Source: a virus. Taken from it: a DNA stretch of 59,152 nucleotides. A program made the translations under genes and the position numbers. The notes beneath the pieces are model-generated. The model made no database searches. It saw only the letters and a list, made by a program, of their open reading frames with translations, and was not told the DNA's origin. This document shows, piece by piece, positions 4,433 to 46,550 of this stretch (the stretch's first letter is position 1; each line of letters begins with the position of its first letter). Where the stretch lies: the IMG/VR virus record IMGVR_UViG_3300005290_000034, positions 1 to 59,152 of that record, one strand, 5' to 3'.

Positions 4433-4500
4433 TCACAATTCCCTTGTTCTTGCTCTCGTGCAGGGATTGAATCAGAGAAAATAGGATCAGCCCCAGCCCT

Positions 4501-4689
4501 TTATTTGAGTCCCATTTCGCGCTCCATTTTGTCGACCTGCGCCTTCGACCGTTCCCGATGGAGCCGGCACACTTCCAGCCAGAGTTCGATCGAGCGCTGC
4601 TTGTTGCCGATTGCTGCGGCGCAAACGCTCTCGTCCATGATGCGCTTTAGCTTCTGCTCGTGCGAGAGGTCGAGGAGATCTGAAATCAT
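4501..4689 (-). CDS. Hypothetical helical protein (62 aa)
   Basis: The ATG (4687-4689) overlaps the upstream TGA (ATGA). The product is nearly all helix (LLDLSHEQKLKRIMDES, WLEVCRLHRERSKAQVDKM) and may be a small coiled coil. A 68-base gap with a GGGAA ribosome-binding sequence separates it from the DUF1376 gene. Confidence 0.6.
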   Translation of the reverse strand: MISDLLDLSHEQKLKRIMDESVCAAAIGNKQRSIELWLEVCRLHRERSKAQVDKMEREMGLK

Positions 4690-4874
4690 TTTTTCTTCCG
4701 CTCGTAATACTGTCTGGAAGCTATGACATGACACTCCAAGCAACGGATGTAGAGCCGACCATCATTCGAAATGACATAGGAGTTAGAAGGCTTCTTTGGG
4801 TGCCCGCAGTTGAAGCGTCCGGTGCGCAGCGGCTTGCTCTGGAGCATCAGCAGTTCGTTGGCGGTCAGCGTCAT
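4686..4874 (-). CDS. Small zinc-ribbon protein (62 aa)
   Basis: A 62-aa product with Cys/His pairs FNCGHPK and RCLECH about 20 residues apart, a likely zinc ribbon, and a basic C-terminus (YYERKKK). Overlaps of 4 bases on both sides link it to the methyltransferase gene. Probably nucleic-acid binding; function not known. Confidence 0.65.
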   Translation of the reverse strand: MTLTANELLMLQSKPLRTGRFNCGHPKKPSNSYVISNDGRLYIRCLECHVIASRQYYERKKK

Positions 4875-5851
4875 GCGGCAAATTCGAAGTCGTGCTGTTG
4901 TTCGTCCTGCTTGCCCGCGCGGGCGGTCTCGAGGTTCCTGACGGCCTGCCGGTAGTAAGATGGCTTCAGTTCAAATCCGATGCCCTTACGACCAGCGCAG
5001 ACGGCGCTGTAGACCTCGGATCCAACTCCCATGAACGGCGTGAGCACCGTCTCGCCCGGATTGCTCCAGAGCGTCAGGATGCGGTCTATCACGTCGAGTT
5101 GGAGCGGGTGGACGTGCTTCTCGTCCTCTTCGTCGCGCGCCTCTTTGAACGGGAGAACGCGTCCGAGACGAATATCATCCCAGAATGCCGAGGCATACTG
5201 GCGCCAGATCCAATGCGAATAGCGGTTCTCGATCTGGTTTCCGGTCCATCCACGGTAAGCGAGGATTTCTGTCGGCGGCCGGCGCTCGCCCGCATAATCC
5301 AGCAATCCAACCGGGTGCGCGATGGGGATTTGATTCTCACCCTTGCGCCGAAACACTAGCAGGTAATCCGCACTGGCTGCCGAACACCGGGACGAGTCAT
5401 CTACGATCGTCTTGTGCGCGAGGTTCTTTGCCATCGTCCGGTTACGCACTGCGAGCGGTTCCTTCCACACGGCATAGCGCGCGATGTAGCGGAATCCGTT
5501 CTTCTCATGCAGTCGGATGATGTCGCCTGGGAAGTCGATTAGATAATCGGTCCCGCTATTACCGCTCGGGACGTCCATCGCGTGAACAGCGGTCATGCGG
5601 CCTGGAAGCGTGAGCCGGAACAGTTCCTGCACGACGAACGCGTAATGATCGAAGAACTGCGCGTAGTCTTTGGAATTCGACAGATCACGCTCGCTGGAGC
5701 TGTAGGTATAGAGTGCACCGGACGAGGTTGCGAACGGTGGAGAATAAATCGAGAGTGCCACCGATGAATCAGGCAACGCACGCATACCTTCGATCGCATC
5801 CCCGCAATAGATGGCGTATTTATCCGTGATGACTTGCTCTTGTACGCTCAT
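4871..5851 (-). CDS. N4/N6 DNA methyltransferase (beta-class order)
   Basis: A 326-aa protein with the catalytic motif IV SPPF (about residues 37-40) near the N-terminus and the AdoMet motif I (TPFMGVGSEVYSA, then GFELKPSYY) near the C-terminus, the order of beta-class amino-methyltransferases. A Ser before PP is typical of cytosine-N4 enzymes, but adenine-N6 cannot be excluded. The start is the ATG at 5849-5851, overlapping the HNH stop. No partner restriction endonuclease is adjacent, so it is an orphan enzyme, likely protecting phage DNA from host restriction or marking it. Confidence 0.85.
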   Translation of the reverse strand: MSVQEQVITDKYAIYCGDAIEGMRALPDSSVALSIYSPPFATSSGALYTYSSSERDLSNSKDYAQFFDHYAFVVQELFRLTLPGRMTAVHAMDVPSGNSGTDYLIDFPGDIIRLHEKNGFRYIARYAVWKEPLAVRNRTMAKNLAHKTIVDDSSRCSAASADYLLVFRRKGENQIPIAHPVGLLDYAGERRPPTEILAYRGWTGNQIENRYSHWIWRQYASAFWDDIRLGRVLPFKEARDEEDEKHVHPLQLDVIDRILTLWSNPGETVLTPFMGVGSEVYSAVCAGRKGIGFELKPSYYRQAVRNLETARAGKQDEQQHDFEFAA

Positions 5852-8927: not shown

Positions 8928-9284
8928 CTAATACTGACATTTTCTCACGCGAACGTCACGCCTTGGACTATACGGCGACTTCGCGTTGCTCCGCCCGAAT
9001 ATCAGCGCGGGACCACGCTTTTTATTGCACGATCGGCACAGCGGCACGACCGCCAACGGGCGCGTGTAGTCACGATGATCGTAAATCTGCGCGAAGGCTC
9101 CGCAATCCACACAATACGCGGTATCAATCGGAGGTAAATCACCGTTTTCTACGGCCTTCCGAACCGCGCTGTACGCGCGTGCTTTGTCTGCGTTCGTTCG
9201 TTTGACGCACGCCCAGCAGTAAACCGAATGCGGCTCTCGCTCGAAGGCCGATCCACAGCGCACGCAAAGGCTGATGACATTCAC
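8928..9284 (-). CDS. HNH-like zinc-binding protein (118 aa)
   Basis: Starts at GTG (9282-9284), overlapping the TGA of the HTH gene. It carries Cys pairs CVRCG, CWAC, CVDCG and CRSC plus YDHRDYTRPL, the layout of small phage HNH-type or zinc-ribbon proteins in which the histidine lies between the last two Cys pairs. It could be a nuclease or a structural zinc protein. It is the second gene of the leftward operon. Confidence 0.65.
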   Translation of the reverse strand: MNVISLCVRCGSAFEREPHSVYCWACVKRTNADKARAYSAVRKAVENGDLPPIDTAYCVDCGAFAQIYDHRDYTRPLAVVPLCRSCNKKRGPALIFGRSNAKSPYSPRRDVRVRKCQY

Positions 9285-9502
9285 AACCGCTTGCCTTTCT
9301 TCTGGGCTGGCTTCTGGCCCGTCAGCAGGTAGTTCCGGACGATCAAAAGCCGCCGATAGGACGGTTCCGAGGCGTAATCGTCCGCCCCGACTTTGGTAAT
9401 CCACGAGTAAGAGACCGCCGGGCGCAAATCATCGGCAATCTTCCTCCACTCGCCCCGGCGACTCCTGAGCGCCGCCGCCACTTCCGCAAATAGATCATCC
9501 AT
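9281..9502 (-). CDS. HTH DNA-binding regulator (Cro/CI-like)
   Basis: A 73-aa protein with a helix-turn-helix-like region (WRKIADDLRPAVSYSWITKV, then helical RRLLIVRNYL) and a basic tail. As first gene of the leftward operon, facing the rightward promoter, it is the natural candidate for the lytic or early switch regulator. The predicted -10 box at 9510-9515 places the transcript start within a base or two of the ATG (9500-9502), so the mRNA is probably leaderless. The assignment rests on position and the HTH pattern; no CI-like C-terminal domain exists. Confidence 0.6.
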   Translation of the reverse strand: MDDLFAEVAAALRSRRGEWRKIADDLRPAVSYSWITKVGADDYASEPSYRRLLIVRNYLLTGQKPAQKKGKRL

Positions 9503-9509
9503 ACGGCGG

Positions 9510-9539
9510 ATACTACCGTAAAATTTTGCGCGTGTGCAA
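9510..9539 (-). promoter_or_regulatory. Leftward sigma70-like promoter
   Basis: Read on the minus strand: -35 TTGCAC (9534-9539), 18-base spacer, -10 TAGTAT (9510-9515). Transcription would begin at about 9503, almost on the start codon of the HTH gene. Confidence 0.55.
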
Positions 9540-9563
9540 GCTATACATTAAAATAATGCTTGC
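9536..9563. promoter_or_regulatory. Inverted repeat, candidate operator
   Basis: GCAAGC-TATA-CATTA-AAA-TAATG-CTTGC is an inverted repeat centred between the divergent promoters, overlapping the -35 of each. TACCGTA (about 9514-9520) and TACGGTA (about 9594-9600) form a second, wider inverted pair. These are plausible operator sites for the adjacent HTH protein. Confidence 0.45.
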
Positions 9564-9588
9564 GTATCTGGTAAAACTTTGATAGTAT
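9560..9588 (+). promoter_or_regulatory. Rightward sigma70-like promoter
   Basis: -35 TTGCGT (9560-9565), 17-base spacer, -10 TAGTAT (9583-9588), or alternatively TATGAT at 9586-9591. It would drive the rightward early operon from 9622. A GGTAACAAA motif (9597-9605), shared with two other promoters here, lies just downstream. Confidence 0.5.
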
Positions 9589-9621
9589 GATTCTACGGTA
9601 ACAAACAAAGAGGCCAGCAAA

Positions 9622-9939
9622 ATGACACGCACACATACACCGTCCCCGTGGAAATTCAATACTGACGCAGACATTATCGAATCCTCGGACGAGCGACAGC
9701 TTGCGGCGGTATACGGTCCGAAAGCTGAGGCACATGCCAACGCCCGCCTGATCGCGGCGGCGCCGGATCTCGTCGAAACACTCGACGCCTTGGTGCAGAA
9801 ACTTGACATGATTGCGCCAAATATTGAAGCCGCAATTCTGTGCTGGCAGCGGCAATTTCCCCACCAATTGTTCATCGGTTATGCCGCCGAAATAACCGCG
9901 GCCCGTGACGCGCTCGCCAAGGCCGCGGCCGCAAAATAG
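9622..9939 (+). CDS. Early phage protein, HTPxPW/ANARLIAAAP family
   Basis: A 105-aa protein with the N-terminal HTPSPWKF and central ANARLIAAAPDLVETLDALV signatures of a very common small phage family of unknown function. First gene of the rightward operon, directly behind the divergent promoter. A paralogue lies at 11836-12147. Confidence 0.75.
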   Translation: MTRTHTPSPWKFNTDADIIESSDERQLAAVYGPKAEAHANARLIAAAPDLVETLDALVQKLDMIAPNIEAAILCWQRQFPHQLFIGYAAEITAARDALAKAAAAK

Positions 9940-9956
9940 TCCCGAAGCGTCATGCC

Positions 9957-9975
9957 AGGCAGGGAGACGAGATGA
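9957..9975 (+). repeat. Start-associated repeat, copy 1
   Basis: AGGCAGGGAGACGAGATGA: a 19-base sequence holding the ribosome-binding site and start codon of the following gene, repeated exactly at 10210, 10520 and 10750. Confidence 0.85.
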
Positions 9976-10196
9976 GTTATACGCCCCGCGCTGTGCGTCA
10001 AGCCATGCGACCCGACACACCAGAAGCGGTCGCCGAGCGCATCTATTACCGCCGCGTTGTGAAGCCGACTGTCGAACGCGAATTCGCGGATCGATATCCG
10101 ACCTTCCCTGAAGGCTTCACACGAGAGCAGGTCATGGAAGCGATTGACTGGCAAACGCGACGGCTCCAAGAGCTTGCCGCTCAGTGGAACACATGA
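9972..10196 (+). CDS. Hypothetical protein (74 aa)
   Basis: Starts within copy 1 of the 19-base start-associated repeat. The product is charged, with an aromatic-basic middle (ERIYYRRVVKPTVEREF) and a C-terminal helix (QVMEAIDWQTRRLQELAAQW). No family recognised. Confidence 0.65.
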   Translation: MSYTPRAVRQAMRPDTPEAVAERIYYRRVVKPTVEREFADRYPTFPEGFTREQVMEAIDWQTRRLQELAAQWNT

Positions 10197-10209
10197 ACGC
10201 ATTTTGTGC

Positions 10210-10228
10210 AGGCAGGGAGACGAGATGA
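10210..10228 (+). repeat. Start-associated repeat, copy 2
   Basis: Exact second copy of the 19-base sequence; its ATG (10225) starts the next small gene. Confidence 0.85.
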
Positions 10229-10341
10229 GCCTTTACGAAGTTTTCACGCGCGACGGCGAAACGTTTCTCGGCAAGCGTTGGCTTTGGTCGTGGCAGGCAG
10301 CGGAGCTGCGCGGTCGTGGTTACATCGTTGTTCTGTGGTGA
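10225..10341 (+). CDS. Small hypothetical protein (38 aa)
   Basis: Starts at the ATG inside copy 2 of the repeat. The product (SLYEVFTRDGETFLGKRWLW and so on) is a small beta-type chain rich in Trp. A longer in-frame extension upstream exists but overlaps the preceding gene; the repeat fixes the start here. Confidence 0.6.
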   Translation: MSLYEVFTRDGETFLGKRWLWSWQAAELRGRGYIVVLW

Positions 10342-10366
10342 CGCCGCCACTTTCTGGGAGATGGAG

Positions 10367-10483
10367 ATGACGAGACAGGAAGCTAGGGTAGTCCAATTTT
10401 TATCGATGATTCTTGGCTGCGTTCTGTGTGGGATTTTACTCTTATGCCTGACCGCGATCGTCGGCGTGACCAAGGTGTTGTGA
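10367..10483 (+). CDS. Single-span membrane microprotein (38 aa)
   Basis: ATG at 10367 behind GGGAGATGGAG, a degenerate version of the start-associated repeat. After a polar N-terminus (TRQEARVVQF) comes one transmembrane helix (LSMILGCVLCGILLLCLTAI). Function unknown. Confidence 0.5.
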   Translation: MTRQEARVVQFLSMILGCVLCGILLLCLTAIVGVTKVL

Positions 10484-10519
10484 AAAAACTAGCGCGATTC
10501 GCGAATGTCTCGCGAGGCA

Positions 10520-10538
10520 AGGCAGGGAGACGAGATGA
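10520..10538 (+). repeat. Start-associated repeat, copy 3
   Basis: Exact third copy of the 19-base sequence; its ATG (10535) starts the next gene. Confidence 0.85.
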
Positions 10539-10750
10539 GCCAGATCCAGTTTCTTCAAAAATGCGCCGCCGCGATGAACGGCTACCGTGAGCTGACGCAG
10601 GACGCTTCCTACGGTTCGCGTGTCGAGAACGGCCGCATGCAGCTCGTTCGCGTGACGTTCGATGAGCGCGGCAAGAGCCAGATCGAGGAATGCAGCGAGT
10701 GGATGCCGGTCGGCGAGTGGCTCGCGTTCATGGATTCGATTGCGGTCTGA
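10535..10750 (+). CDS. Hypothetical protein (71 aa)
   Basis: Start fixed by copy 3 of the repeat. An alpha/beta product with a Trp-rich C-terminus (EWMPVGEWLAFMDSIAV). Not recognised. Confidence 0.65.
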   Translation: MSQIQFLQKCAAAMNGYRELTQDASYGSRVENGRMQLVRVTFDERGKSQIEECSEWMPVGEWLAFMDSIAV

Positions 10751-10768
10751 GGCAGGGAGACGAGATGA
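10750..10768 (+). repeat. Start-associated repeat, copy 4
   Basis: Exact fourth copy, beginning on the last base of the preceding stop codon; its ATG (10765) starts the next gene. Confidence 0.85.
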
Positions 10769-10995
10769 ACGCGAGTTGCCTTTGCGGCGTGATCGAAAAA
10801 GGTCTGCCGCTTCCCGAGCGCGCCACATACGGCTCCATCGTCGGGACCTTGCGGCAGATGGAAGTCGGAGACAGCGCGTTCTTCCGCGGCGCCACGGTCA
10901 ACTCTATCAATTCCGGCGCGCGGTATGCGCTGGGAAGCGGGAATTACACGCTGCGCAAACTGAGCGGCGGCGTGCGCGTCTGGAGGACAACGTGA
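10765..10995 (+). CDS. Hypothetical protein (76 aa)
   Basis: Start fixed by copy 4 of the repeat. The product contains GTLRQMEVGDSAFFRG and a C-terminal TLRKLSGGVRVWRT, resembling small phage proteins with a beta-barrel-like fold that recur in early operons. Its stop overlaps a GTG start. Confidence 0.65.
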   Translation: MNASCLCGVIEKGLPLPERATYGSIVGTLRQMEVGDSAFFRGATVNSINSGARYALGSGNYTLRKLSGGVRVWRTT

Positions 10996-11216
10996 ACGCC
11001 TGTATGACGCCGCGCAAGCCCCACTTCTGGTTCAAGGACGGCAAGTGGCACGTGAAGACTAACTACTTTCTCGTTGATGGCGTATCGCCTGCCGACTGCT
11101 TCCTCAGCTTGTGCGGCGAAGAGAGTCAGGCTGGCGCGAGCGCGAATGCCCCGTGGGTAAAGCAGTCATCGATGCGCGCGATCGGGACAATTATGCGGCG
11201 GGGATTGTGGCGATGA
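10992..11216 (+). CDS. Hypothetical protein (74 aa), GTG start
   Basis: GTG at 10992 overlaps the preceding TGA; an ATG at 11004 is an alternative start. The first half is well formed (KPHFWFKDGKWHVKT, Trp-rich), while the last 25 residues look less protein-like. A neighbouring frame looks better over 11150-11212, so a small frameshift near 11120-11150 is possible. Confidence 0.5.
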   Translation: MNACMTPRKPHFWFKDGKWHVKTNYFLVDGVSPADCFLSLCGEESQAGASANAPWVKQSSMRAIGTIMRRGLWR

Positions 11217-11395
11217 ATAGCGACGGTAGCCCTACCCGCCTTGAGCTTGCCGCTGCTTACGAGGCCGAGCGGCGCCGACGCGAAGAGAAGAAGGACGATG
11301 CGCTCCGCACGGCGCGCGAATACCTGGAGGCGCTGCCGGAGGCGTATGACGTCGGGCCGGTGATCGAAACCATTGATGAGGCTTTGCAGCAATGA
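11213..11395 (+). CDS. Hypothetical helical protein (60 aa)
   Basis: ATG at 11213 overlaps the preceding TGA (ATGA). A highly charged helical product (AAAYEAERRRREEKKDDALR), probably a short coiled coil. Overlaps the next start by 4 bases. Confidence 0.55.
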   Translation: MNSDGSPTRLELAAAYEAERRRREEKKDDALRTAREYLEALPEAYDVGPVIETIDEALQQ

Positions 11396-11739
11396 TGGAG
11401 AAATACATTCTGGTCGATCGTGAACCGAAGCGTTGCGACGACATTCTAGAGTGGGGACGTTGGTATGAGACGGCCCAACGCCATATTGGCGACGACACGA
11501 TCAATGGCGTTCGTGTATCGACCGTGTTCCTCGGACTAGATCACAGTTTTAGTGAAGGAGATCCGATCCTATTCGAGACGATGGTATTCGGCGGCGAACA
11601 CAACGAATGGCAGGAACGCTATTTTACTTATGACGAAGCTGAAGCGGGACATAAGAATGTCGTCCGGCGGATTCGCCTAGGATTACACCCGAGTCGCGAG
11701 AACCTCATCGATGCCATTCGGGAAGGTAAGGCGCCATGA
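11392..11739 (+). CDS. Conserved phage protein (115 aa)
   Basis: A protein of a type I have seen in many proteobacterial phages: YILVDREPKRCDDILEWGRW, then RVSTVFLGLDHSF, then ILFETMVFGG and a C-terminal helix. Function not known; always in accessory early regions. The reading frame starts with ATG ATG over the preceding TGA. Confidence 0.75.
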   Translation: MMEKYILVDREPKRCDDILEWGRWYETAQRHIGDDTINGVRVSTVFLGLDHSFSEGDPILFETMVFGGEHNEWQERYFTYDEAEAGHKNVVRRIRLGLHPSRENLIDAIREGKAP

Positions 11740-11834
11740 TGGACCGCATCCTCTGGCTGATCCTGCCGACGTGCCTGCTGCTCGCGACGGTGTTCTTCAC
11801 GGCGGTTACGCTGCTTTCGATATTTGGGAGATGA
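11736..11834 (+). CDS. Single-span membrane microprotein (32 aa)
   Basis: ATG ATG over the preceding TGA at 11736. Nearly the whole peptide is one hydrophobic helix (LWLILPTCLLLATVFFTAVT). It is one of several such microproteins in this operon. Confidence 0.5.
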   Translation: MMDRILWLILPTCLLLATVFFTAVTLLSIFGR

Positions 11835-11835
11835 G

Positions 11836-12147
11836 ATGAAACATACGCCCGGACCGTGGGCAGTTCATTGGCCCGGTTATACGGTTGAGGCCGTTCATCC
11901 AGTTAGGAACGATGCAACGGGGAAAACTCCAGTCGCGTTCGTAACTGGATATTTTGCCGGTCAACAGACAGCTAACGCTCTTCTGATCGCCGCTGCGCCT
12001 GAACTATATGAGGCGCTACAGGCCATGCTGAACGGCGTCTATCACTACCATGATACCGCCGAACAGATTGCGGGGAACTGCGGAGAGTACCAGACCGTTA
12101 GACGTGCCCGCGCCGCTCTCGCCAAAGCCCAAGGAATATGCCGATGA
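11836..12147 (+). CDS. Early phage protein, HTPGPW family (paralogue)
   Basis: A 103-aa protein with KHTPGPWAVHW at the N-terminus, TANALLIAAAPELYEALQAML in the middle and a RARAALAKA helix at the end: the same family as the gene at 9622. The start is ATG 11836 behind GGGAGATGAG, which resembles the start-associated repeat. Confidence 0.75.
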   Translation: MKHTPGPWAVHWPGYTVEAVHPVRNDATGKTPVAFVTGYFAGQQTANALLIAAAPELYEALQAMLNGVYHYHDTAEQIAGNCGEYQTVRRARAALAKAQGICR

Positions 12148-12374
12148 CAAACGACGAAGTAAAGGTAGCTGCGGTGCTCGCGTTCCACCGCTTCTGCGCT
12201 GAGCAGAACATCGCCACATGCAACTTCGGCGACGAAGTGAAGATGGCGTGGATGGCCGCGTTCGTGGAAGGATGCCACTGGTCTGTGGATAAGACGACTA
12301 CGGAGGCCATCGAAATGCGGCGCCAGGAACACGAGGAAACGATGCGGCTGTTGCTGCAGGAAGGGAAAGCGTGA
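12144..12374 (+). CDS. Hypothetical protein (76 aa)
   Basis: ATG at 12144 overlaps the preceding TGA; another ATG 6 bases upstream is possible. Product helical, with a Trp/Cys-rich middle and an acidic-basic C-terminal helix. No family recognised. Confidence 0.6.
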   Translation: MTNDEVKVAAVLAFHRFCAEQNIATCNFGDEVKMAWMAAFVEGCHWSVDKTTTEAIEMRRQEHEETMRLLLQEGKA

Positions 12375-13835: not shown

Positions 13836-14044
13836 GTGACATCCCGAAGCCACGCATCTCGCGCTCATCTATCTTGCCCGGATGGGAATGTAGAGGCCAC
13901 GGCTATTCCGCTATGGGCTCGTGGGAGACGCCGCGCATGGCTTACCTCATGTGGCTAGAGAATTTCACACAGACAAACGCGGAATTTTATAAAGCACTTC
14001 AACGGATCAATCTAAAGGTATCGCAATGCAAAACGAAGTTGTAA
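13832..14044 (+). CDS. Hypothetical protein (70 aa)
   Basis: ATG overlaps the preceding stop; its 3' end overlaps the ERF gene by 19 bases. The product has a GWECRGHGYSAMGSW middle and a helical C-terminus. Not recognised; translational coupling to ERF is likely. Confidence 0.55.
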   Translation: MSDIPKPRISRSSILPGWECRGHGYSAMGSWETPRMAYLMWLENFTQTNAEFYKALQRINLKVSQCKTKL

Positions 14045-14760
14045 CGCCGCAAGAGACAACGACGGTTGCGACCGTGACGCCGATGCGCCTGCTGGAGATC
14101 GCCACGCAGCGGGGCGGTTCTATCGAGGAACTCTCTAAGCTGATGGATCTCGAGGAACGCTGGCAGAGGAACCGCGCCCGCGCTGCCTTCGATGAGGCAA
14201 TGGCCGCAGCTAAAGCCGATATCCCGGTAGTGAAGAAAAACAGAGAGGTCGATTTCGTATCGCAGAAAGGACGAACGAACTACCACTATGAGGACCTAGC
14301 TGAGATCGCCCGCACCATCGACCCGGTGTTATCGAAGCACGGCCTCTCCTACCGCTACCGCACAAGCTCCCAGCCTAACGAGCCAGTCACGGTAACGTGC
14401 ATCATCTCGCACCGTGGCGGGCATTCGGAGGAGAACACGCTATCGGCCGCTCGAGATGACTCTGGAAATAAGAACAGCATCCAAGCTATAGGCTCGACCA
14501 TCACATTTTTACAGAGGTATACGCTGAAAGCCGCTCTCGGGCTGGCTGCGGCGCAGGACGACGACGGGCAGACAGCCGAGAAACCTGCCGTCATTCCCGA
14601 TCCCGAAGGCAAGGCGAAACTGGAAGAGTGCGGCTCCATCCGCTCTTTGAATGAAACATGGAAGGCGCTTACAGGAAGTCAGCGCAAGACGCTTTCGGCA
14701 GTTGCCAATGAATGCCGCGAGCGTATCAAAGCGGCCGACAAGGAAGCCGCGCAAGCATGA
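14026..14760 (+). CDS. erf: ERF-family single-strand annealing protein
   Basis: A 244-aa ERF-superfamily recombinase. After an N-terminal helical segment comes the core: VKKNREVDFVSQKG, YHYEDLAEIARTIDPVLSKHGLSY, TCIISHRGGH, then IQAIGSTITFLQRYTLKAALGLAAAQDDD, which is the family's central motif. Such proteins anneal single strands for phage DNA recombination and circularisation. The YqaJ exonuclease one gene downstream forms the usual exonuclease/annealing pair; an HNH gene sits between them. Confidence 0.88.
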   Translation: MQNEVVTPQETTTVATVTPMRLLEIATQRGGSIEELSKLMDLEERWQRNRARAAFDEAMAAAKADIPVVKKNREVDFVSQKGRTNYHYEDLAEIARTIDPVLSKHGLSYRYRTSSQPNEPVTVTCIISHRGGHSEENTLSAARDDSGNKNSIQAIGSTITFLQRYTLKAALGLAAAQDDDGQTAEKPAVIPDPEGKAKLEECGSIRSLNETWKALTGSQRKTLSAVANECRERIKAADKEAAQA

Positions 14761-15200
14761 AGAACCGCGAACGCCTTCTGTTGATGCATATCTTCAATCA
14801 AATGAAGAAGCGATGCTACGACTCTACGCACAAACAATACAAAGATTATGGTGGACGTGGCATCACTATATGTGATCGATGGATTGCATCGTTCGATGCG
14901 TTTTACGCAGACATGTCACCCCGTCCCGCTGGCCTCTTGCTAGATCGGCGGGACAATGATGGTCCTTATTCGCCTGCCAATTGCCGGTGGGTTAGTAGAT
15001 CGGAATCTAATAGCAATCGGCGTAACTGCATTTATGTTTATTATCACGGTGAGCGCATCACTCTAAAAGAGGCGAGCCGTCGTGCTGGCTTGAAGTATCG
15101 GCGCGTCCATAAACGAATTATCGAGCATGGCTGGACAGTGGAAATGGCGCTTACTCTTCCGATAGGGCAAGCGTGGGGAACAAAACGGAGGGGCACGTGA
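14757..15200 (+). CDS. HNH-type homing endonuclease
   Basis: A 147-aa protein with YGGRGITICDRWIASFDAF, GLLLDRRDNDGPYSPANCRW and a trailing SNRRN, a pattern common in phage HNH/AP2-related homing nucleases. A C-terminal HTH-like region (ITLKEASRRAGLKYRRVHKR) follows. Inserted between the annealing protein and exonuclease genes, overlapping both by 4 bases. More AT-rich wording than its neighbours suggests recent transfer. Confidence 0.75.
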   Translation: MKNRERLLLMHIFNQMKKRCYDSTHKQYKDYGGRGITICDRWIASFDAFYADMSPRPAGLLLDRRDNDGPYSPANCRWVSRSESNSNRRNCIYVYYHGERITLKEASRRAGLKYRRVHKRIIEHGWTVEMALTLPIGQAWGTKRRGT

Positions 15201-15862
15201 GCGCCCCGCAAGGCAGCGCTGCTTGGCTTGCAGAAAGAGCCGGGGCGGCGACCTGTAGCCGCTTCAAGGATGTATTAGCCCGCACGAAGTCAGGAGAGGC
15301 CGCTACTCGGCGGAACTACAAAGCGCAGCTCGTCGTCGAGAGACTTACGGGCGAGCCTATGGAGAGTTACCAGAACGCGGCAATGGCGCACGGCACAGCA
15401 AGCGAGCCGCTCGCACGTGAGGCGTACGAGGCTTTCAGTGGGAACCTCGTCGAGCAAATCGGCTTCCGGCAGCACCCGACGATCGAATGGTGCGGCGGAT
15501 CGGTCGATGGACTGGTGGACGATGAAGGCATTATCGAGATAAAGGCGCCTTACGTGCCGAGCGTCCACTTAGACACACTGCTTAACGGCATGCCTCCAGA
15601 GCACATGCCACAGACGCAAGGGCTGATGCTTGTCCTGGATCGCCAGTGGTGCGATTTCATTTCCTGGGACGTGCGTTTCCCAGAGCATTTGCAGCTCTAC
15701 GTCGAGCGCGTCGAGAGAAACGATGCCTATATCGAAACCCTACAGAAAGAGGTCATTACCTTTCTCAAGGAAGTGCAATCGCTGCACGATCGCCTGATGA
15801 ACCGCACTCCGCTTATCGAGCAGCTTGCCGCGAGCCTGGACGTGGCTGGTTCGCAAGCATGA
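15197..15862 (+). CDS. YqaJ-type recombination exonuclease
   Basis: A 221-aa lambda-Exo-like nuclease. QGSAAWLAERAG near the start, GTASEPLAREAYEAF, GGSVDGLVDDEG (the catalytic acidic motif) and EIKAP (the Lys of the PD-(D/E)xK core) appear in the expected order. The start is GTG 15197, overlapping the preceding TGA. It would resect 5' strands for the ERF protein. Confidence 0.88.
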   Translation: MSAPQGSAAWLAERAGAATCSRFKDVLARTKSGEAATRRNYKAQLVVERLTGEPMESYQNAAMAHGTASEPLAREAYEAFSGNLVEQIGFRQHPTIEWCGGSVDGLVDDEGIIEIKAPYVPSVHLDTLLNGMPPEHMPQTQGLMLVLDRQWCDFISWDVRFPEHLQLYVERVERNDAYIETLQKEVITFLKEVQSLHDRLMNRTPLIEQLAASLDVAGSQA

Positions 15863-16667: not shown

Positions 16668-16950
16668 GGACCGCCACAAAGAGCGCGTGCATTCTGTCGG
16701 CTGCTCAGTCTGCCGTCGTCTCGGACGCGGTTACGTTCAGGCCCAAGCTCACCACGTTGCGGAACATACCGGCAAGCGTCACCCGTTCGCGCTGGCGAAT
16801 CTCTGCGAGGAGCACCACGATCCGCACCGGACAGGATCGGGCTTTCACGGCATGGGGACGAAACGCTTCTGTTCGATATTCAAAGTGCCGGGTGAAACTG
16901 AATGGGGTTTATTGGCGTGGGCGATTGAAGACTTGGAGAGATACGCATGA
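16657..16950 (+). CDS. Ref-like HNH recombination nuclease
   Basis: A 97-aa protein beginning at ATG 16657: HKERVHSVGCSVCRRLG, then AQAHHVAEHTGKRHPF, LCEEHHD and a GFHGMG segment. The CxxC, HH and HH pattern fits the phage P1 Ref-type HNH fold, a RecA-dependent nuclease family. It overlaps the NinB gene, as lambda-type recombination genes often do. Confidence 0.7.
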   Translation: MRAEDRHKERVHSVGCSVCRRLGRGYVQAQAHHVAEHTGKRHPFALANLCEEHHDPHRTGSGFHGMGTKRFCSIFKVPGETEWGLLAWAIEDLERYA

Positions 16951-17867: not shown

Positions 17868-18043
17868 TGAACGAAGAATGTTCCGTGATCGTTCGTGCGG
17901 GGGCGGGTTACTACCGCTATACGTCCAAGCCGTCTAACTGTCAGCTAAAGGCAGTCGTTGAACGTGATGGACGATGGTGTTGCAAGCGCCACGATCCAGC
18001 CAAGCTCAAGCCCGCCCGGCGCGCTGACGAGAGGGACGCATGA
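17864..18043 (+). CDS. Small Cys-containing protein (59 aa)
   Basis: Start at ATG ATG behind GAGGGAGGG. Cys pairs (SNCQL, WCCKRHD) and a basic tail suggest a small zinc protein. A start-type sequence GAGAGGGACGCATGA spans its 3' end. Confidence 0.55.
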   Translation: MMNEECSVIVRAGAGYYRYTSKPSNCQLKAVVERDGRWCCKRHDPAKLKPARRADERDA

Positions 18044-18222: not shown

Positions 18223-18338
18223 TCTGGCGCCTGATCCACCACTGTATAGCTCACCCGTTGCTGCTCACATCAACGCAGCGGGCTATGAGATTCCATGATT
18301 GGACAGCCAGCAAAGGATGGGGAGAGAGGGACGCATGA
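18219..18338 (+). CDS. Small phage protein, AHPLL family (39 aa)
   Basis: GTG at 18219 overlaps the preceding TGA. The sequence IWRLIHHCIAHPLLLTS followed by FHDWTA matches a short motif seen in many phage microproteins. Function unknown. Confidence 0.5.
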   Translation: MIWRLIHHCIAHPLLLTSTQRAMRFHDWTASKGWGERDA

Positions 18339-40614: not shown

Positions 40615-41333
40615 CAGAATGTCAGTATGTGATCGCCGCCCATGTTGCGGATGAGTTTCATGCCCCACGACTGCAGGAGCTTCGACGCTGCATCTTCCTC
40701 GTCGCCGTAAGCACTCTCGTTTTTCTTCTGCTCGACCACGATCACCGGCTTGGCGGTGCGGATCAGTTTCTCGCCTCCAGCGATGACGGCCCGCTCGACG
40801 CCTTCGACATCGATCTTGATGAAGCCGACGTCTTCAAGGTCCGGGATATCGTCCAACCGCATGACCTTCACACCCTGTATCACGTAATGGTCATCTGGGT
40901 TCGGGACATGCCTTGTTCCTGGATGGCGCTTACCAAGAGCAACGTGTGCATTGCCTGTCGTCTCCAGCGGGATCTCCATGTCGATAACCGCTTCAGTCTC
41001 ACCGAGCGCATGCCTGCGGAGATCGCATGTTTCCATTTCCACGTTCGCTTCGAACAAGCAAGCGTGAGTCGGAACCGGCTCAAACGCAACGACCCGATCA
41101 AACCGCTTCACCAGATGCGTCGACCATTCACCGCAATGACCACCGCAATCAAGCGCCAGCTTGAAGTTAGTTACGTGAGAAAGAGCGGCTTCCAGTTTGC
41201 GAAATTGATAGCTCGCGATACCGTCGACGAACTGCGTCTTAGGCCCGCTATTCAGCATGACGTCAACGAAATGGACTTCCGTTTTAGGCTGCCAGAATCC
41301 GCCGACCAGTTTTCCGACCTCTTCTTTTGTCAC
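40614..41333 (-). CDS. FkbM-family methyltransferase
   Basis: A 239-aa protein with LALDCGGHCGEWSTHL (AdoMet motif I), VVAFEPVPTHACLFEANV, and VGFIKIDVEGVERAVIAGGE, the characteristic pattern of FkbM methyltransferases (O-methylation of sugars and related targets). GTG start 41331-41333 overlaps the glycosyltransferase TGA. Lies at the downstream end of an island of sugar-related enzymes. Likely methylates a glycan made by, or attached to, phage or host surface. Confidence 0.85.
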   Translation of the reverse strand: MTKEEVGKLVGGFWQPKTEVHFVDVMLNSGPKTQFVDGIASYQFRKLEAALSHVTNFKLALDCGGHCGEWSTHLVKRFDRVVAFEPVPTHACLFEANVEMETCDLRRHALGETEAVIDMEIPLETTGNAHVALGKRHPGTRHVPNPDDHYVIQGVKVMRLDDIPDLEDVGFIKIDVEGVERAVIAGGEKLIRTAKPVIVVEQKKNESAYGDEEDAASKLLQSWGMKLIRNMGGDHILTF

Positions 41334-42181
41334 AGTAGCCTCAATGCCTCCGTCTCGACCTTCTCCGGCGTGATATCCCGCATCGCTTTCTCGCAGTGAT
41401 CGCACGGCACCCGCATGCCGCAGCCGAGACCGTCACCCACGAACAGGTTTACTTGATCCTCGTAACCAGTGACTGCCGGCGATATGAATCCGCCGAAGAT
41501 CACGACTGCCTTTGTCCTGTAAACCGCGGCCAGATGATGACAGCCACCTTCCTGCGTAATGAGAAGCCGCGCCTTCGATATCACCGCCGCAGCGTGCCTA
41601 AAGTCCCTTGTTTCGATGAACTCGACCGCATCAATCAGCGGCGTTCCGGACGGCCCGATCTGCGTCACCTTGAGCCCGCGGTTTTGCAGCAACCACGCAA
41701 GCTTGTTCCAGTAACGCCACGGCCACGATTTATTGACCGCGTCCGGCCGATGCTTTAACTGAGGCTGCAAAATCAAACGGCCCGAGTTCATCGAGCCGTA
41801 TTCGGTCTGTTCCCTGTTTAAGCAGATGTCCCCGCGCGGAGGTCGATACTCTCGCCACGTCCACTGCCTCTGTGACTTCGCTTCGATATACGGCCGCGCG
41901 TTCGAACCGTTGGTAATCGAATCGCACTCGCCTGAATCGTTCGGCCCGTAGATATACGGAAGCCCGGTCCAAAGCTCATGCCAACGCGCCTGCCCGTTGG
42001 CGCCGCGAATCATTACCTTGCGGCCAGTCTTCTGATTGAGCTTCTTCGCCTCGCCTGCAGCGATAAGCTCGTCGCCTAAACCGATGTCTACACCACATAC
42101 TCGCCGCCACGCCCGAAGTAATCGTAGGCGTTGACGAGCGCAACCGTTATCACAAACCCTTACGCACACTGAACCCGTCAT
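41330..42181 (-). CDS. GT9-like glycosyltransferase (start uncertain)
   Basis: From about residue 30 the protein reads as a GT-B enzyme: GVDIGLGDELIAAGEAKKL and GNARWHELW-type start, a middle GRLILQPQLKHRP, then ARLLITQEGGCHHLAAVYRT and VVIFGGFISPAVTG, matching the C-terminal donor-binding lobe of heptosyltransferase-type (GT9) enzymes. The N-terminal 30 residues look out of frame: an ATG at 42179-42181 and GTG at 42167-42169 are the only starts, and a 2-base deletion near 42090-42095 would explain a lost MWGVDIG-type start. Confidence 0.75.
   Translation of the reverse strand: MTGSVCVRVCDNGCARQRLRLLRAWRRVCGVDIGLGDELIAAGEAKKLNQKTGRKVMIRGANGQARWHELWTGLPYIYGPNDSGECDSITNGSNARPYIEAKSQRQWTWREYRPPRGDICLNREQTEYGSMNSGRLILQPQLKHRPDAVNKSWPWRYWNKLAWLLQNRGLKVTQIGPSGTPLIDAVEFIETRDFRHAAAVISKARLLITQEGGCHHLAAVYRTKAVVIFGGFISPAVTGYEDQVNLFVGDGLGCGMRVPCDHCEKAMRDITPEKVETEALRLL
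42088..42153 (-). pseudogene. Possible remnant of another glycosyltransferase gene
   Basis: GTG 42151-42153 to TAG 42088-42090 encodes 21 residues (VITVALVNAYDYFGRGGEYV) resembling the first strand and turn of phage sugar-transferase genes (CVVTV...GRGxEYV). It starts in a GTGA overlap and stops where homology to the GT9-like protein begins. It could be the scar of a deletion fusing two genes. Confidence 0.4.
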
Positions 42182-42320
42182 CTGGCGGCGGCGCAGGCGC
42201 TCTCTCCCGCCATCCAATCGACTGGAGCCGATCCTTTACAGCCGCCAGAATCTGTTCTGCATCTTTCGATTCTTCTTCCATCTCTACTATTAGCAGCAGC
42301 ACTTCCTCTACAACACTCAC
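42150..42320 (-). CDS. Small hypothetical protein (56 aa)
   Basis: GTG 42318-42320 overlaps the methyltransferase TGA. Acidic helix (VVEEVLLLIVEMEEESKDAE) then a short C-terminal tail. Possibly a small coiled-coil partner. Confidence 0.5.
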   Translation of the reverse strand: MSVVEEVLLLIVEMEEESKDAEQILAAVKDRLQSIGWRERAPAPPPDDGFSVRKGL

Positions 42321-42877
42321 GCTCGCCTCCAATACTGCGCGGTCTCTTGCCTCGACCGCGGCAGAATCTTCTCAAGCTTGAACCCGCACTCCTCCATGAT
42401 CTCGTAGACGTTGCACGTATTTTCTGGATAGTGCTTGCTGCGCATAACGCCCGACGCAAATTCCTCTCGCGCTGAGAATCCGAACACGACCAGATCATTG
42501 GCGGCGCGGGCCGAGTAACGCACGCCCATATCTGGAAACTTGAGTTTGTGACACACACCGAGCGACAGCACGATGTCGAACTTCAACACCGGAAACTCTC
42601 TCGCCAGCGCATTTAGGTCCGCGCGGATGAACCGCATCGGCAGTCCTGCACACTGCTTGCGTGCCACTTTTAGATGATCCTCGACATACTCAATGCCAAC
42701 GACACCGCTGGCGCCGGCTCGCGCAAACTCACGGCCGATGAGACCTTCAGCCGTGCCGAGATCTAAAACGGACTTGCCGGCGCACTCCGCTAAGGCAGGC
42801 CCCAAGCCTTTGATCTGATCCTCGAGCGTGCGGTCTCCTTCCTGCACTCCTTCGATAGCAAACCATCCTTTAGGCAA
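42317..42877 (-). CDS. Class I SAM methyltransferase (186 aa)
   Basis: Opens at TTG 42875-42877 with PKGWFAIEGVQEGDRTLEDQ, then KSVLDLGTAEGLIGREFARAG (motif I) and VVGIEYVEDHLKVARK; FDIVLSLGVCHKL matches motif IV. The pattern is of small-molecule or sugar methyltransferases found in phage glycan islands. The TTG start is chosen because homologues I recall begin near this point; a GTG 11 codons later is an alternative. Confidence 0.75.
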   Translation of the reverse strand: MPKGWFAIEGVQEGDRTLEDQIKGLGPALAECAGKSVLDLGTAEGLIGREFARAGASGVVGIEYVEDHLKVARKQCAGLPMRFIRADLNALAREFPVLKFDIVLSLGVCHKLKFPDMGVRYSARAANDLVVFGFSAREEFASGVMRSKHYPENTCNVYEIMEECGFKLEKILPRSRQETAQYWRRA

Positions 42878-43520
42878 GCAATCCTCGCATCTCTCCGCGC
42901 CGCATCTCGTCCAGCGTCCACTGATTATCGGCAAGGCAACTCGCCCACTTGCGCCGATCATCTACGGCATACGTCGCACAGCACTCTGGCGCGCACACCA
43001 CCCACACGCCCTCCAGAAGCGCCGTCACGGCTGCGGCAGACGACCAAGTGACCAGCAGGCCTGCGTGTTTCAGATCATCCGCCAGGGGCCGTCCTATGCC
43101 CTTCCTGCGCAGGATGACGCGGTTCATTCCGTACTGCCGGCGAAGATTGGCAGTTACCCGTTCCCTCCATCCCGGATCGCCCATGATCTCCATGAACTCG
43201 TCGGACTGCGCTGCCACGACTACCGTCTCGCCGTCGCGCATTGGCTTTATCTGGATACCGAGTTCCGCGAAACGCTTTCCGTCCGACTCACCTATTCCCG
43301 TAGGCTGCAATCGGTTCTTTGCGATGCGAAAGTAACGCTCGCGCGCGCAATCAAACAGACTGTTGTCCACGTAGTACCACGTCCGCCCTTCCGCCTTCGC
43401 CTGATCCCAGACGTGCTTCCATGCCATCCGCACGCCGTAGAACACGACCTCCTGTGAATCGTCTAGCGGCTCGAGCACCGAACGAAGATGCCCGCCGCAG
43501 CCTTGAGCCACGGCAGACAT
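42870..43520 (-). CDS. GT-B-like glycosyltransferase (216 aa)
   Basis: Contains EVVFYGVRMAWKHVW, TWYYVDNSLFD, YFRIAKNRLQPTGIG and LLVTWSSAAAVTALLEGVWVV; the last is typical of the donor-binding part of GT-B enzymes. The start is placed at ATG 43518-43520; an earlier TTG (43569-43571) would overlap the neighbouring gene. It shares its SSAAxVxALxxGxxV motif with the next gene, so the two may be related. Confidence 0.6.
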   Translation of the reverse strand: MSAVAQGCGGHLRSVLEPLDDSQEVVFYGVRMAWKHVWDQAKAEGRTWYYVDNSLFDCARERYFRIAKNRLQPTGIGESDGKRFAELGIQIKPMRDGETVVVAAQSDEFMEIMGDPGWRERVTANLRRQYGMNRVILRRKGIGRPLADDLKHAGLLVTWSSAAAVTALLEGVWVVCAPECCATYAVDDRRKWASCLADNQWTLDEMRRGEMRGLLA

Positions 43521-43533
43521 GATGCGAACGCTT

Positions 43534-44337
43534 TTAGGCTTCCACGGCTCGACGAGACAGCAGATGCTCAAACGCCACGCCGCTTTGAATCTCCTCGACG
43601 TGCCATTGACTCCAAGCTAAGGCACACATCGCGTCGTATCGTTTCTGCGAATCGAGTTGGATCGAATCCAATCCCGGGCTGGATGCTGACTTCGCAATCC
43701 ACGACGGGCTCTCGCACACGACCGGAATGCCTTTTACCAAAGCCTGAACCCCAGCGCTTGAACCCCAGATTACGCATGCGTAGGCACCCTCCAGATCGCG
43801 TTCTAGCGGCGTTTTAGGCGGTTCGTTTCCCGGATGGGGTCTTATCCGTATCGGGCGGTCCGAAAGCTTCCTGAGCCGTTCTGCCGCGTCCTGTGCCCAC
43901 GTCGGCGCCATTGCTGTTCCAGGCCGGCCAAACGGGCGGTTGGGGCAGATAACGATTTGCTCGCCCGTAACTCGCCACGGCTCCAGCGCTACGCCTAAGG
44001 CTTGCCATCTTTCAGACCCTCCGACGTTCCATTTTCCGGAACCGTTATGCCCGCCGATCGCCAGCGCGAACCACTCGCGCGGGTTCTGGCTGTGCGGGGA
44101 TATGCCTCCCGGGCCGAGGTAGCCGTTTTCAGCCACCACCACAACGCCGCCCCGCGCCTCGAAAGCTGTCGCCGTCTCATGTACGCCCAGATATCTGTTC
44201 CAGCAACATAAAACGTCCCCGGGACTGACGACTGTCGGCGGCCCTGCTATGTAGTCGTATCCGGCGGCCTTCAAGCCAGCGATAAACGCCTCATGCCGAT
44301 AGACAGGAAGCGGCCGGATAAGACTCCACGCCCTCAC
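43534..44337 (-). CDS. GT-B-like glycosyltransferase (267 aa)
   Basis: N-terminus AWSLIRPLPVYRHEAFIAGL and GDVLCCWNRYLGVHETATAF; the C-terminal lobe contains RPIRIRPHPGNEPPKTPLER, then ACVIWGSSAGVQALVKGIPV, a nucleotide-sugar donor pocket of GT-B type. A Gly/Ser-rich middle (GGHNGSGKWNVGG) is unusual. GTG start overlaps the preceding gene (GTGA). Confidence 0.65.
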   Translation of the reverse strand: MRAWSLIRPLPVYRHEAFIAGLKAAGYDYIAGPPTVVSPGDVLCCWNRYLGVHETATAFEARGGVVVVAENGYLGPGGISPHSQNPREWFALAIGGHNGSGKWNVGGSERWQALGVALEPWRVTGEQIVICPNRPFGRPGTAMAPTWAQDAAERLRKLSDRPIRIRPHPGNEPPKTPLERDLEGAYACVIWGSSAGVQALVKGIPVVCESPSWIAKSASSPGLDSIQLDSQKRYDAMCALAWSQWHVEEIQSGVAFEHLLSRRAVEA

Positions 44338-44540
44338 GCAGCCGGCGTGTTCGCCGCGATAGCGTCCGCGAGTCCCTTCGCTTTCTGGTCGAGTTCAGTC
44401 GCCAACGCGATCGACTTCGCCCGATCACCCGCCGCATCCCGAACCTGGGCCGCTACACCCGTGATAAACGCGACCGCCGAATCCACTACGGCATTCATTT
44501 CCCCAACTTCCTTCTGCAGGTTGTCCATCTCGACACTCAT
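44334..44540 (-). CDS. Small helical protein (68 aa)
   Basis: Helical product: EVGEMNAVVDSAVAFITGVA, Ala-rich middle, then AKGLADAIAANTPAA. A short type found with phage capsid and fibre genes (N-terminal stalk then AxxNTPAA end). Overlaps the next gene by 4 bases. Confidence 0.6.
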   Translation of the reverse strand: MSVEMDNLQKEVGEMNAVVDSAVAFITGVAAQVRDAAGDRAKSIALATELDQKAKGLADAIAANTPAA

Positions 44541-44710
44541 GGTTTTGCTCCTTCGTTGATTGCTTGGGACAGTGCTTCGCGTTTTGCGGCAAGCTTCTTC
44601 CGCATCTCTTCGATCTTTTGTGAATCGGATATCAGCGTCTCGATCATGGCCTCAAGCCGATCCAGCCGCTCCTCAATCCTAGGCCACTGGATGTAGAGTT
44701 TGAATTTCAA
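44537..44710 (-). CDS. Coiled-coil microprotein (57 aa), TTG start
   Basis: TTG 44708-44710 has GGAGGA 6 bases upstream. Product all helix (IEERLDRLEAMIETLI, QKIEEMRKKLAAKREAL). Overlaps the DUF115-like gene by 32 bases and the next ATG by 4, so it looks like a coupled small gene. Confidence 0.55.
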   Translation of the reverse strand: MKFKLYIQWPRIEERLDRLEAMIETLISDSQKIEEMRKKLAAKREALSQAINEGAKP

Positions 44711-45338
44711 AAAAGTCCTCCAGTCTTACCTTCGGAAACGCATTCAATGCTGTCCCCGGCGTTGCATTCAGGACTTCAATCCCGAGCTCGATCAGCTTGT
44801 TCTCGATCGAACTGAACTTCTGCGCGTAGCCGACGAGGTGATTCTCAAACGATGGCACCGGATGATCGCCGCCTGGGAAATGTGCCCGACCGTTGTCAAA
44901 GCGGTAATCGTATCCCAGAAGAATGATCCGCTTCGCACCGAGTAAGACAGCGAGATTTAGCGCCTGATAGCCGCTGTTGCAGCCTGTTTTCAGTCCCGTC
45001 GGATCAAGCGAGAGCCCCGTCGGATCGCCTTTATCCAAGTTCCGCAGAACGTGAACGTCGAGCGGAAACTCCACCTTCATGTGCTGCTCGATCGAAACCT
45101 TGTAAGCCGGCAGCTTCAACGCCTGCGGATTCCAGCCCCACCACCTCGCGTCAGCGGCGTAAATGATATCGGCCCACGGACAGAACAGGTATGCGTTGTT
45201 GACCGCGATCGTATTCAGGCTTCGAACTGCGTTGCACTGCTCCTGCGTAAGGCTCGGTCCGCTTCCGATCAGCGCAACCGTTTCACCTTCCCACTCTCTA
45301 AGAACCCTAGAGAACCCATCCGCAATCCGGACGATCAC
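44679..45338 (-). CDS. DUF115/MptE-like putative glycosyltransferase
   Basis: A 219-aa protein with TVALIGSGPSLTQEQC, then NTIAVNNAYLFCPWADIIY (DUF115/MptE-like motif, related to motility-associated and sialyl-type transferases) and NLAVLLGAKRIILLGYDYR. It would transfer or activate a sugar-like residue. It heads the sugar-modification island and is co-transcribed with the collagen-like fibre gene upstream. Confidence 0.75.
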   Translation of the reverse strand: MIVRIADGFSRVLREWEGETVALIGSGPSLTQEQCNAVRSLNTIAVNNAYLFCPWADIIYAADARWWGWNPQALKLPAYKVSIEQHMKVEFPLDVHVLRNLDKGDPTGLSLDPTGLKTGCNSGYQALNLAVLLGAKRIILLGYDYRFDNGRAHFPGGDHPVPSFENHLVGYAQKFSSIENKLIELGIEVLNATPGTALNAFPKVRLEDFFEIQTLHPVA

Positions 45339-46256: not shown

Positions 46257-46550
46257 TCAGGCAACCGACAAGGTGACGCGCTCTTCCAGCGTTCGCGGCG
46301 TAGAGGTAACAATCCGCCACGTCGTTATGTAGAGCACGTTTTCAACGCCGCCAATCAATAGATGCGAGACAATATTTCCGTTCACCGATGTAATGCCGGA
46401 AAGCATTACGCTAGCGTTCGGATCAGCCGCAAGATTCTTCGATGTAATGAATACCTCGGCACTCGCGATCGTCTCGCCATTGGCCAGGACGCGACTCCAG
46501 TCCGTCCCTGCATACACGCGTTCGGCAGGATGCTTGGTCGGGAAGCTCAT
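46257..46550 (-). CDS. Fibre-tail adaptor-like protein (97 aa)
   Basis: ATG 46548-46550 (overlapping the repeat-protein stop). The TKHPAERVYAGTDWSRVLAN, then IASAEVFITSK pattern matches phage fibre-tail adaptor proteins. Sits at the end of the fibre block. Confidence 0.65.
   Translation of the reverse strand: MSFPTKHPAERVYAGTDWSRVLANGETIASAEVFITSKNLAADPNASVMLSGITSVNGNIVSHLLIGGVENVLYITTWRIVTSTPRTLEERVTLSVA

What the first reader, a model, noticed from the sequence alone, without database searches (positions are those of the whole stretch)
9957..10768. A 19-base start-associated sequence repeated exactly before four consecutive early genes
AGGCAGGGAGACGAGATGA, which includes the ribosome-binding site and ATG, occurs unchanged at 9957, 10210, 10520 and 10750; weaker versions occur at about 10356 and 11825. 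Exact conservation extends beyond what translation needs, like the start-associated sequences of some mycobacteriophages. It could be a regulator or RNA-binding target, or a recombination seam that lets small genes be shuffled.
Basis: seen in the sequence. Interest (0 to 1): 0.65.

Follow-up and report, generated by a model that had tools for sequence, protein, structure and literature searches.

The report
Repeated gene-start sequence, likely gene-swap seam
A bacterial virus carries the same 19-letter gene-start sequence in front of four unrelated small genes, and comparison with other viruses suggests it is both a ribosome landing site and a seam at which small genes are gained, lost or swapped, although this virus itself has no close relative in which a swap can be seen.

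Summary
AGGCAGGGAGACGAGATGA occurs exactly four times in 59 kb (0.01 expected even at 3 mismatches), each time ending in the ATG of a small early gene. Identity spans -15 to +4 and stops sharply on both sides; the four genes are not paralogues. The element holds an ordinary Shine-Dalgarno (GGGAG), but most conserved bases lie outside it.

The exact 19-mer was found in no other virus contig. A relative (L016/G003, Erf 63% identical) has a longer start-associated repeat before four consecutive small genes, one copy matching the 19-mer at 18 of 19 bases. Against a sister phage (G002) this repeat forms 31-36-bp islands of near-identity between non-homologous genes.

As yardsticks: in Felix O1-like phages (Mordin group) 18 of 26 gene-gain/loss junctions fall on their start-associated repeat; in cluster K mycobacteriophages 0 of 21 do. 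So such repeats seem to split into seam-type and fixed regulatory-type.

The relatives point to seam-type, but the window's own element cannot be tested directly because no close relative was found. Best reading: a ribosome-binding start element doubling as a homology seam for small-gene cassettes, probably used by the phage's Erf/YqaJ system. A new member of a known kind.

The parts
9957..9975 (+). element copy 1 (RBS + ATG of gene 9972-10196)
   Evidence: exact 19-mer; columns -15..+4 invariant
10210..10228 (+). element copy 2 (RBS + ATG of gene 10225-10341)
   Evidence: exact 19-mer
10520..10538 (+). element copy 3 (RBS + ATG of gene 10535-10750)
   Evidence: exact 19-mer
10750..10768 (+). 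element copy 4 (RBS + ATG of gene 10765-10995); its first base is the last base of the stop codon of the gene before
   Evidence: exact 19-mer
10356..10370 (+). degenerate copy GGGAGATGGAGATGA before gene 10367-10483
   Evidence: read from the sequence
11826..11839 (+). degenerate copy GGGAGATGAGATGA before gene 11836-12147; lacks AGGCA
   Evidence: read from the sequence
9972..10196 (+). small gene, 74 aa, unknown function
   Evidence: ORF; one weak PHROG hit, E 0.07; no Pfam match
10225..10341 (+). small gene, 38 aa, unknown function
   Evidence: reading frame open from the ATG; no PHROG or Pfam match
10535..10750 (+). small gene, 71 aa, unknown function
   Evidence: reading frame open from the ATG; no PHROG or Pfam match
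10765..10995 (+). small gene, 76 aa, unknown function
   Evidence: reading frame open from the ATG; no PHROG or Pfam match
14026..14760 (+). Erf-type single-strand annealing recombinase, proposed actor of the seam
   Evidence: PF04404, E 1.3e-25; phrog_155; its role here is inferred
15173..15862 (+). YqaJ-type exonuclease, likely partner of Erf
   Evidence: PF09588, E 9e-17; its role here is inferred

Best explanation
The 19-mer is a translation-initiation element (Shine-Dalgarno GGGAG, spacer, ATG) that also serves as a short homology seam. Small early genes behave as cassettes of the form [element + ORF], gained, lost or exchanged by annealing-type homologous recombination between elements, probably by the phage's own Erf/YqaJ system. 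Each acquired gene then has a working start site, and the copies stay alike through repeated exchange. Shown: four exact copies with sharp edges before unrelated genes; encoded Erf and YqaJ; in relatives with a matching element, islands of identity between different genes; in an unrelated phage group with a comparable repeat, gene indels that end on the repeat. Inferred: that the window's own copies recombine, that Erf does it, and that translation uses the predicted Shine-Dalgarno.
For: Four identical copies, random flanks, unrelated genes. One copy of the L016/G003 repeat matches at 18 of 19 bases although no neighbouring gene is clearly shared; the only hint is one weak pairing at the reporting cut-off. 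G001/G003 against G002: 35/36 and 31/32 identity islands at the element while the adjoining genes are non-homologous, and G002's first element combines the left arm of G003 element 1 with the right arm of G003 element 2 (27/27). G001 and L016 overlap by exactly 127 bp starting at the first base of the island, which suggests an assembly fork there (inference). Felix O1-like phages: 18 of 26 distinct gene-indel junctions lie within 15 bases of the start-associated core, a zone of about 3-6% of the sequence, with overlaps up to 97 bp; Sf14 lacks three genes present in Sf16 and keeps one repeat. The window has Erf and YqaJ, and G002 a Rad52-type annealing protein. The Erf of phage D3 is an active recombinase, and Red beta needs only 23-27 bp (PMC3945230).
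Against: No close relative of the window was found, so no indel at its own copies has been seen. 19 bp (22 of 23 for the best pair) is slightly below the 23-27 bp quoted for Red beta. The G002/G003 comparison is one pair of phages. Junctions in the Felix O1-like set share ancestry, and nearly every gene in that region carries the repeat, so a junction at any gene boundary would tend to touch it. Cluster K SAS are not seams.
Confidence: 0.5

Rival explanations
1. A regulatory start-associated sequence in the strict cluster K sense: a phage or host protein or RNA binds the 19-mer in mRNA or DNA and co-regulates the four genes. Conservation reflects that binding, not recombination.
For: Exact conservation of bases not needed for Shine-Dalgarno pairing (AGGCA, ACGAG); same position and orientation as SAS; confined to early genes.
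Against: Cluster K SAS stay put while genes come and go elsewhere (0 of 21 junctions), whereas in the relatives of this element the adjoining genes differ. Only 4 of the many genes in the arm carry it, and a second, different start repeat lies in the same arm. No RNA structure beyond chance. No binding factor is known.
Confidence: 0.22
2. A single burst of copying: one start region was copied to its neighbours recently (local duplication or gene conversion) and has no continuing role as a seam or binding site; only its use as an RBS is selected.
For: The four copies are perfectly identical and share G at a position where the matching copies in L016/G003 and G002 have A, i.e. homogenised in this lineage. 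The exact 19-mer is in no other virus contig.
Against: Identity stops sharply at the same base on both sides in all four, with no remnant of duplicated coding sequence. A related repeat array in another phage with a different gene set suggests recurrence.
Confidence: 0.14
3. Plain convergence on a good ribosome-binding site, with no role beyond ordinary translation.
For: The element contains GGGAG at a normal spacing and predicted pairing is stronger than the median start (-8.2 to -8.8 against -6.6).
Against: Other starts are as strong or stronger with unrelated flanks; anchored identity over 20 upstream bases is 15-18 among the four against a mean of 6.2; 0.01 copies expected by chance.
Confidence: 0.05

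Closest known systems
Start-Associated Sequences (SAS, 5'-GGGATAGGAGCCC) of cluster K mycobacteriophages (PMC3203893; PMC12699233)
   Same: Short, asymmetric, one orientation, RBS position just before ATG, several copies in the non-structural arm, conserved beyond Shine-Dalgarno pairing, function unknown.
   Different: Different sequence, and conservation reaches through the ATG. Fewer copies (4 against 11-19). No extended inverted-repeat part found. Cluster K SAS do not coincide with gene-indel junctions (0 of 21), whereas the relatives of this element have different genes on either side of it.
26-bp start-associated repeat of Citrobacter phage Mordin and other Felix O1-like phages (PMC4611695)
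   Same: Start-associated, one orientation, before many small genes of unknown function; gene presence or absence changes at the repeat, as in G002/G003.
   Different: Unrelated sequence; part of a longer intergenic unit (overlaps up to 97 bp); many more copies (7-16 cores per stretch); unrelated phage group.
Boundary sequences of lambdoid phages (Susskind and Botstein 1978; Clark et al. 2001, cited in PMC3029335)
   Same: Short conserved sequences at gene junctions proposed as sites of homologous exchange of modules.
   Different: Those are shared between different phages at a given junction; here one sequence is repeated within a genome and always includes the start site. The primary papers were not read here.
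PeSL cassettes (promoter early stem-loops) of T4-type phages (Arbiol et al. 2010; Comeau et al. 2014, cited in PMC4503421)
   Same: A repeated regulatory sequence said to mediate shuffling of small early genes.
   Different: PeSLs are promoter-terminator units; the window's element shows no promoter and no hairpin and is a translation-start element.

Membership tests
Cluster K SAS | repeated sequence a few bases before start codons, in RBS position, one orientation | tested here: met
   four copies, all +, each running into an ATG
Cluster K SAS | 13-bp consensus GGGATAGGAGCCC | tested here: not met
   the window's 19-mer is a different sequence (against PMC3203893)
Cluster K SAS | extended SAS: 17-bp inverted repeats upstream of about half the copies | tested here: not met
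   no inverted-repeat pair lies upstream of the copies and no structure beyond chance
Cluster K SAS | stays with the same genes rather than marking gene indels | tested here: inconclusive
   cluster K: 0 of 21 junctions at a SAS; relatives of this element: different genes at the element; the window itself has no close relative
Seam-type start repeat (Mordin-like) | gene-presence differences between close relatives end on the repeat, leaving one copy | tested here: inconclusive
   met in Felix O1-like phages (18 of 26) and suggested in G002 against G003; not testable on the window's own copies
Seam-type start repeat (Mordin-like) | repeat long enough for the phage's recombinase | tested here: inconclusive
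   19 bp exact, 22 of 23 for the best pair, against 23-27 bp for Red beta (PMC3945230); the value for this Erf is unknown
PeSL cassette | promoter plus stem-loop terminator in the repeat | tested here: not met
   no promoter-like site in 9200-12200 and no + strand terminator at the copies; no hairpin

The most novel reading that the evidence does not exclude
Phages in several unrelated groups use their translation-start sequence as a standard docking seam: a lineage-specific RBS repeat is kept identical across a genome, and between co-occurring phages, so that small-gene cassettes can be exchanged by the phage's annealing recombinase and always arrive ready to be translated. Start-associated repeats would then fall into two functional classes, seams (this element, Mordin type) and fixed regulatory sites (cluster K type).
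Probability: 0.38. Interest if true: 0.65.

Novelty: new member of a known kind. Interest (0 to 1): 0.45.

Why it matters
The function of start-associated repeats has been open since they were named in 2011. A simple comparative test (do gene gains and losses end on the repeat?) separates two behaviours, 18 of 26 junctions in Felix O1-like phages against 0 of 21 in cluster K. That makes the question directly testable and would link a translation signal to the way phages collect small genes of unknown function.

Tried and rejected
Coding explanation: the element reads in frame as RQGDE-M in the window, but spacer length differs between copies in the relative, so there is no conserved frame. Hairpin or RNA structure: z-scores near 0 for the window copies. 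Known RNA family: none. Promoter: none found. Paralogous genes: rejected. Exact 19-mer elsewhere: none in virus contigs. A 17-base core gave 9 virus contigs, none with a comparable array; the two-copy case L080 lies in a longer coding repeat. An 18-mer gave 6 isolated chromosomal hits, about what chance would give. Full records of 40 terminase relatives had no match at up to 2 mismatches, and 40 Erf relatives (L016 not among them) had only weak single matches at 3 mismatches. The start repeats of L029/L030 could not be tested for shuffling because the two records are near-identical; the L022 repeat occurs in no other virus contig. Searches with two of the small proteins found no relatives. The primary PeSL paper was not held.

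Full report
Observation. The 19-mer AGGCAGGGAGACGAGATGA is present four times, exactly, at the stated places. No other match exists at up to three mismatches, and shuffled sequence gives 0.01. Each copy ends in the ATG of a small ORF on the + strand: 74, 38, 71 and 76 aa. Aligned on the ATG, columns -15 to +4 are invariant and the columns outside look random. A fifth small gene (10367) with a degenerate element lies between copies 2 and 3, and the gene at 11836 has another degenerate element. The first gene of the operon, 9622, has none.

Setting. The window is a linear virus record of 59,152 bases. Its terminase is about 60% identical to those of Pseudomonas phages and has both TerL domains. 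The + strand arm that starts at about 9600 holds many small genes of unknown function, then an Erf annealing recombinase (14026, PF04404) and a YqaJ exonuclease (15173, PF09588). The four genes have no Pfam match and at best one weak PHROG match, and they are not paralogues of one another.

More than an RBS. The Shine-Dalgarno part is GGGAG with a 5-nt spacer. Its predicted pairing energy (-8.2 to -8.8) is stronger than the median of 25 starts I listed by hand (-6.6), but several other starts are as strong or stronger with unrelated flanks. Mean anchored identity over 20 upstream bases is 6.2 among all start pairs and 15-18 among the four. There is no RNA structure beyond chance, no promoter-like site in the region and no Rfam family in the window. 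A second, different start-associated repeat exists in the same arm: GAGAGGGACGCATGA at 18029 and 18324, and GAGAGATACGCATGA at 16936.

Relatives. The exact 19-mer occurs in no other virus contig searched, and no DNA-level relative of the region was found among 50,697 phage records. Erf brought in 68 relatives. A de novo scan of these for repeats at gene starts found, besides the window, L016 (four copies), L029/L030 (three copies of AGGATGAGGGAAATG) and L022 (two copies inside a repeat of about 57 bp, 484 bp apart); L063/L064/L067 show only a generic AAGGAGA-type start. L016 is the informative one: ACAAGCAGGCAGGA[AC]GA...ATG precedes four consecutive small genes, and the fourth copy matches the window's 19-mer with one mismatch. 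I estimate that roughly 3e-4 such matches would be expected by chance in the DNA scanned; a count in 257 billion bases of genomes, 6 hits for the 18-mer, is about the chance number, so the motif is not generally common.

The natural experiment. L016 (G003) overlaps the end of the 52-kb record G001 by exactly 127 bp, so the two are most likely one phage. G002 is a sister phage from the same metagenome. The gene upstream of the first element is 93% identical between them. Its 3' end then differs, a 36-bp island (35/36, one gap) carrying the stop codon and the element follows, and after that the genes differ completely. The last element is likewise a 31/32 island with non-homologous genes on both sides. 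G002's first element has the left arm of G003 element 1 and, over 27/27 bases, the right arm of G003 element 2, the pattern expected from exchange inside the element. The G001/L016 overlap starts exactly where the identity island starts. With a 127-base assembly k-mer (assumed, from general knowledge of such assemblies), this suggests a further variant that diverges just upstream of the element; that step is inference.

Yardsticks. In Felix O1-like phages the 26-bp start-associated repeat noted in Mordin (PMC4611695) was compared across 11 phages. Of 26 distinct junctions of gene-size indels, 18 fall within 15 bases of the repeat core, a zone covering about 3-6% of the sequence, with overlaps of up to 97 bp. 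For example, Sf14 lacks three whole genes (1,366 bp) present in the closely related Sf16 and keeps one repeat. In seven cluster K mycobacteriophages, the group in which SAS were named (PMC3203893), 0 of 21 junctions touch a SAS, and SAS sites keep similar positions from phage to phage. Limits: junctions within a phage group share ancestry and are not independent; nearly all genes in the Mordin region carry the repeat, so a junction at any gene boundary would tend to touch one (the long overlaps, not the position alone, are the argument); and only the last 12.8 kb of the cluster K genomes was tested.

Mechanism. Best supported: a start element that doubles as a seam. Phage Rad52-like recombinases, including the Erf of phage D3, recombine short and diverged homologies, and a minimal efficient segment of 23-27 bp is quoted for Red beta (PMC3945230). 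G003's element (about 27-36 bp) and L022's repeat (about 57 bp) exceed this; the window's 19 bp (22 of 23 for the best pair) is slightly below it. That is the main weakness, together with the absence of a close relative of the window. A bound regulator remains possible and would explain why the AGGCA and ACGAG bases stay exact.

Verdict. A real feature and a new member of a known kind (start-associated repeats), probably of the seam type rather than the cluster K type. Moderate interest: the element itself is small, but the junction test turns an old open question into a computation.

Noticed in passing
window 18029-18043, 18324-18338, 16936-16950 (+): A second, different start-associated repeat, GAGAGGGACGCATGA (two exact copies, one with 2 mismatches), before three other genes of the same arm.
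   Followed up: partly
window 9622-9939 and 11836-12147 (+): Two paralogous genes of family phrog_1273 bracket the element-bearing genes; only the second has a degenerate element.
   Followed up: no
window 46547-49009 (-): An 820-aa ORF built of many short degenerate repeats of the type ITEAADT...A, with a long mirror ORF on the other strand.
   Followed up: no
window 41330-45338 (-): A run of ORFs between the structural genes that look, by eye, like methyltransferases and sugar- or surface-modifying enzymes; unusual place for them in a phage.
   Followed up: no
L022, about 4859-5400 (-): A 57-bp exact repeat that includes stop-side sequence, RBS, ATG and the first codons, before two different genes 484 bp apart.
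   Followed up: partly
L194 (Shigella phage Sf14) 4628-4679 against L195 (Sf16): Three whole genes (1,366 bp) absent in Sf14 with one start-associated repeat left at the junction; a clean case for a follow-up on Felix O1-like phages.
   Followed up: yes
L100 (G002) 4494-5165 (-): G002 carries a Rad52_Rad22-type annealing protein where its sister phage G003 has Erf: the recombinase module itself has been swapped.
   Followed up: no
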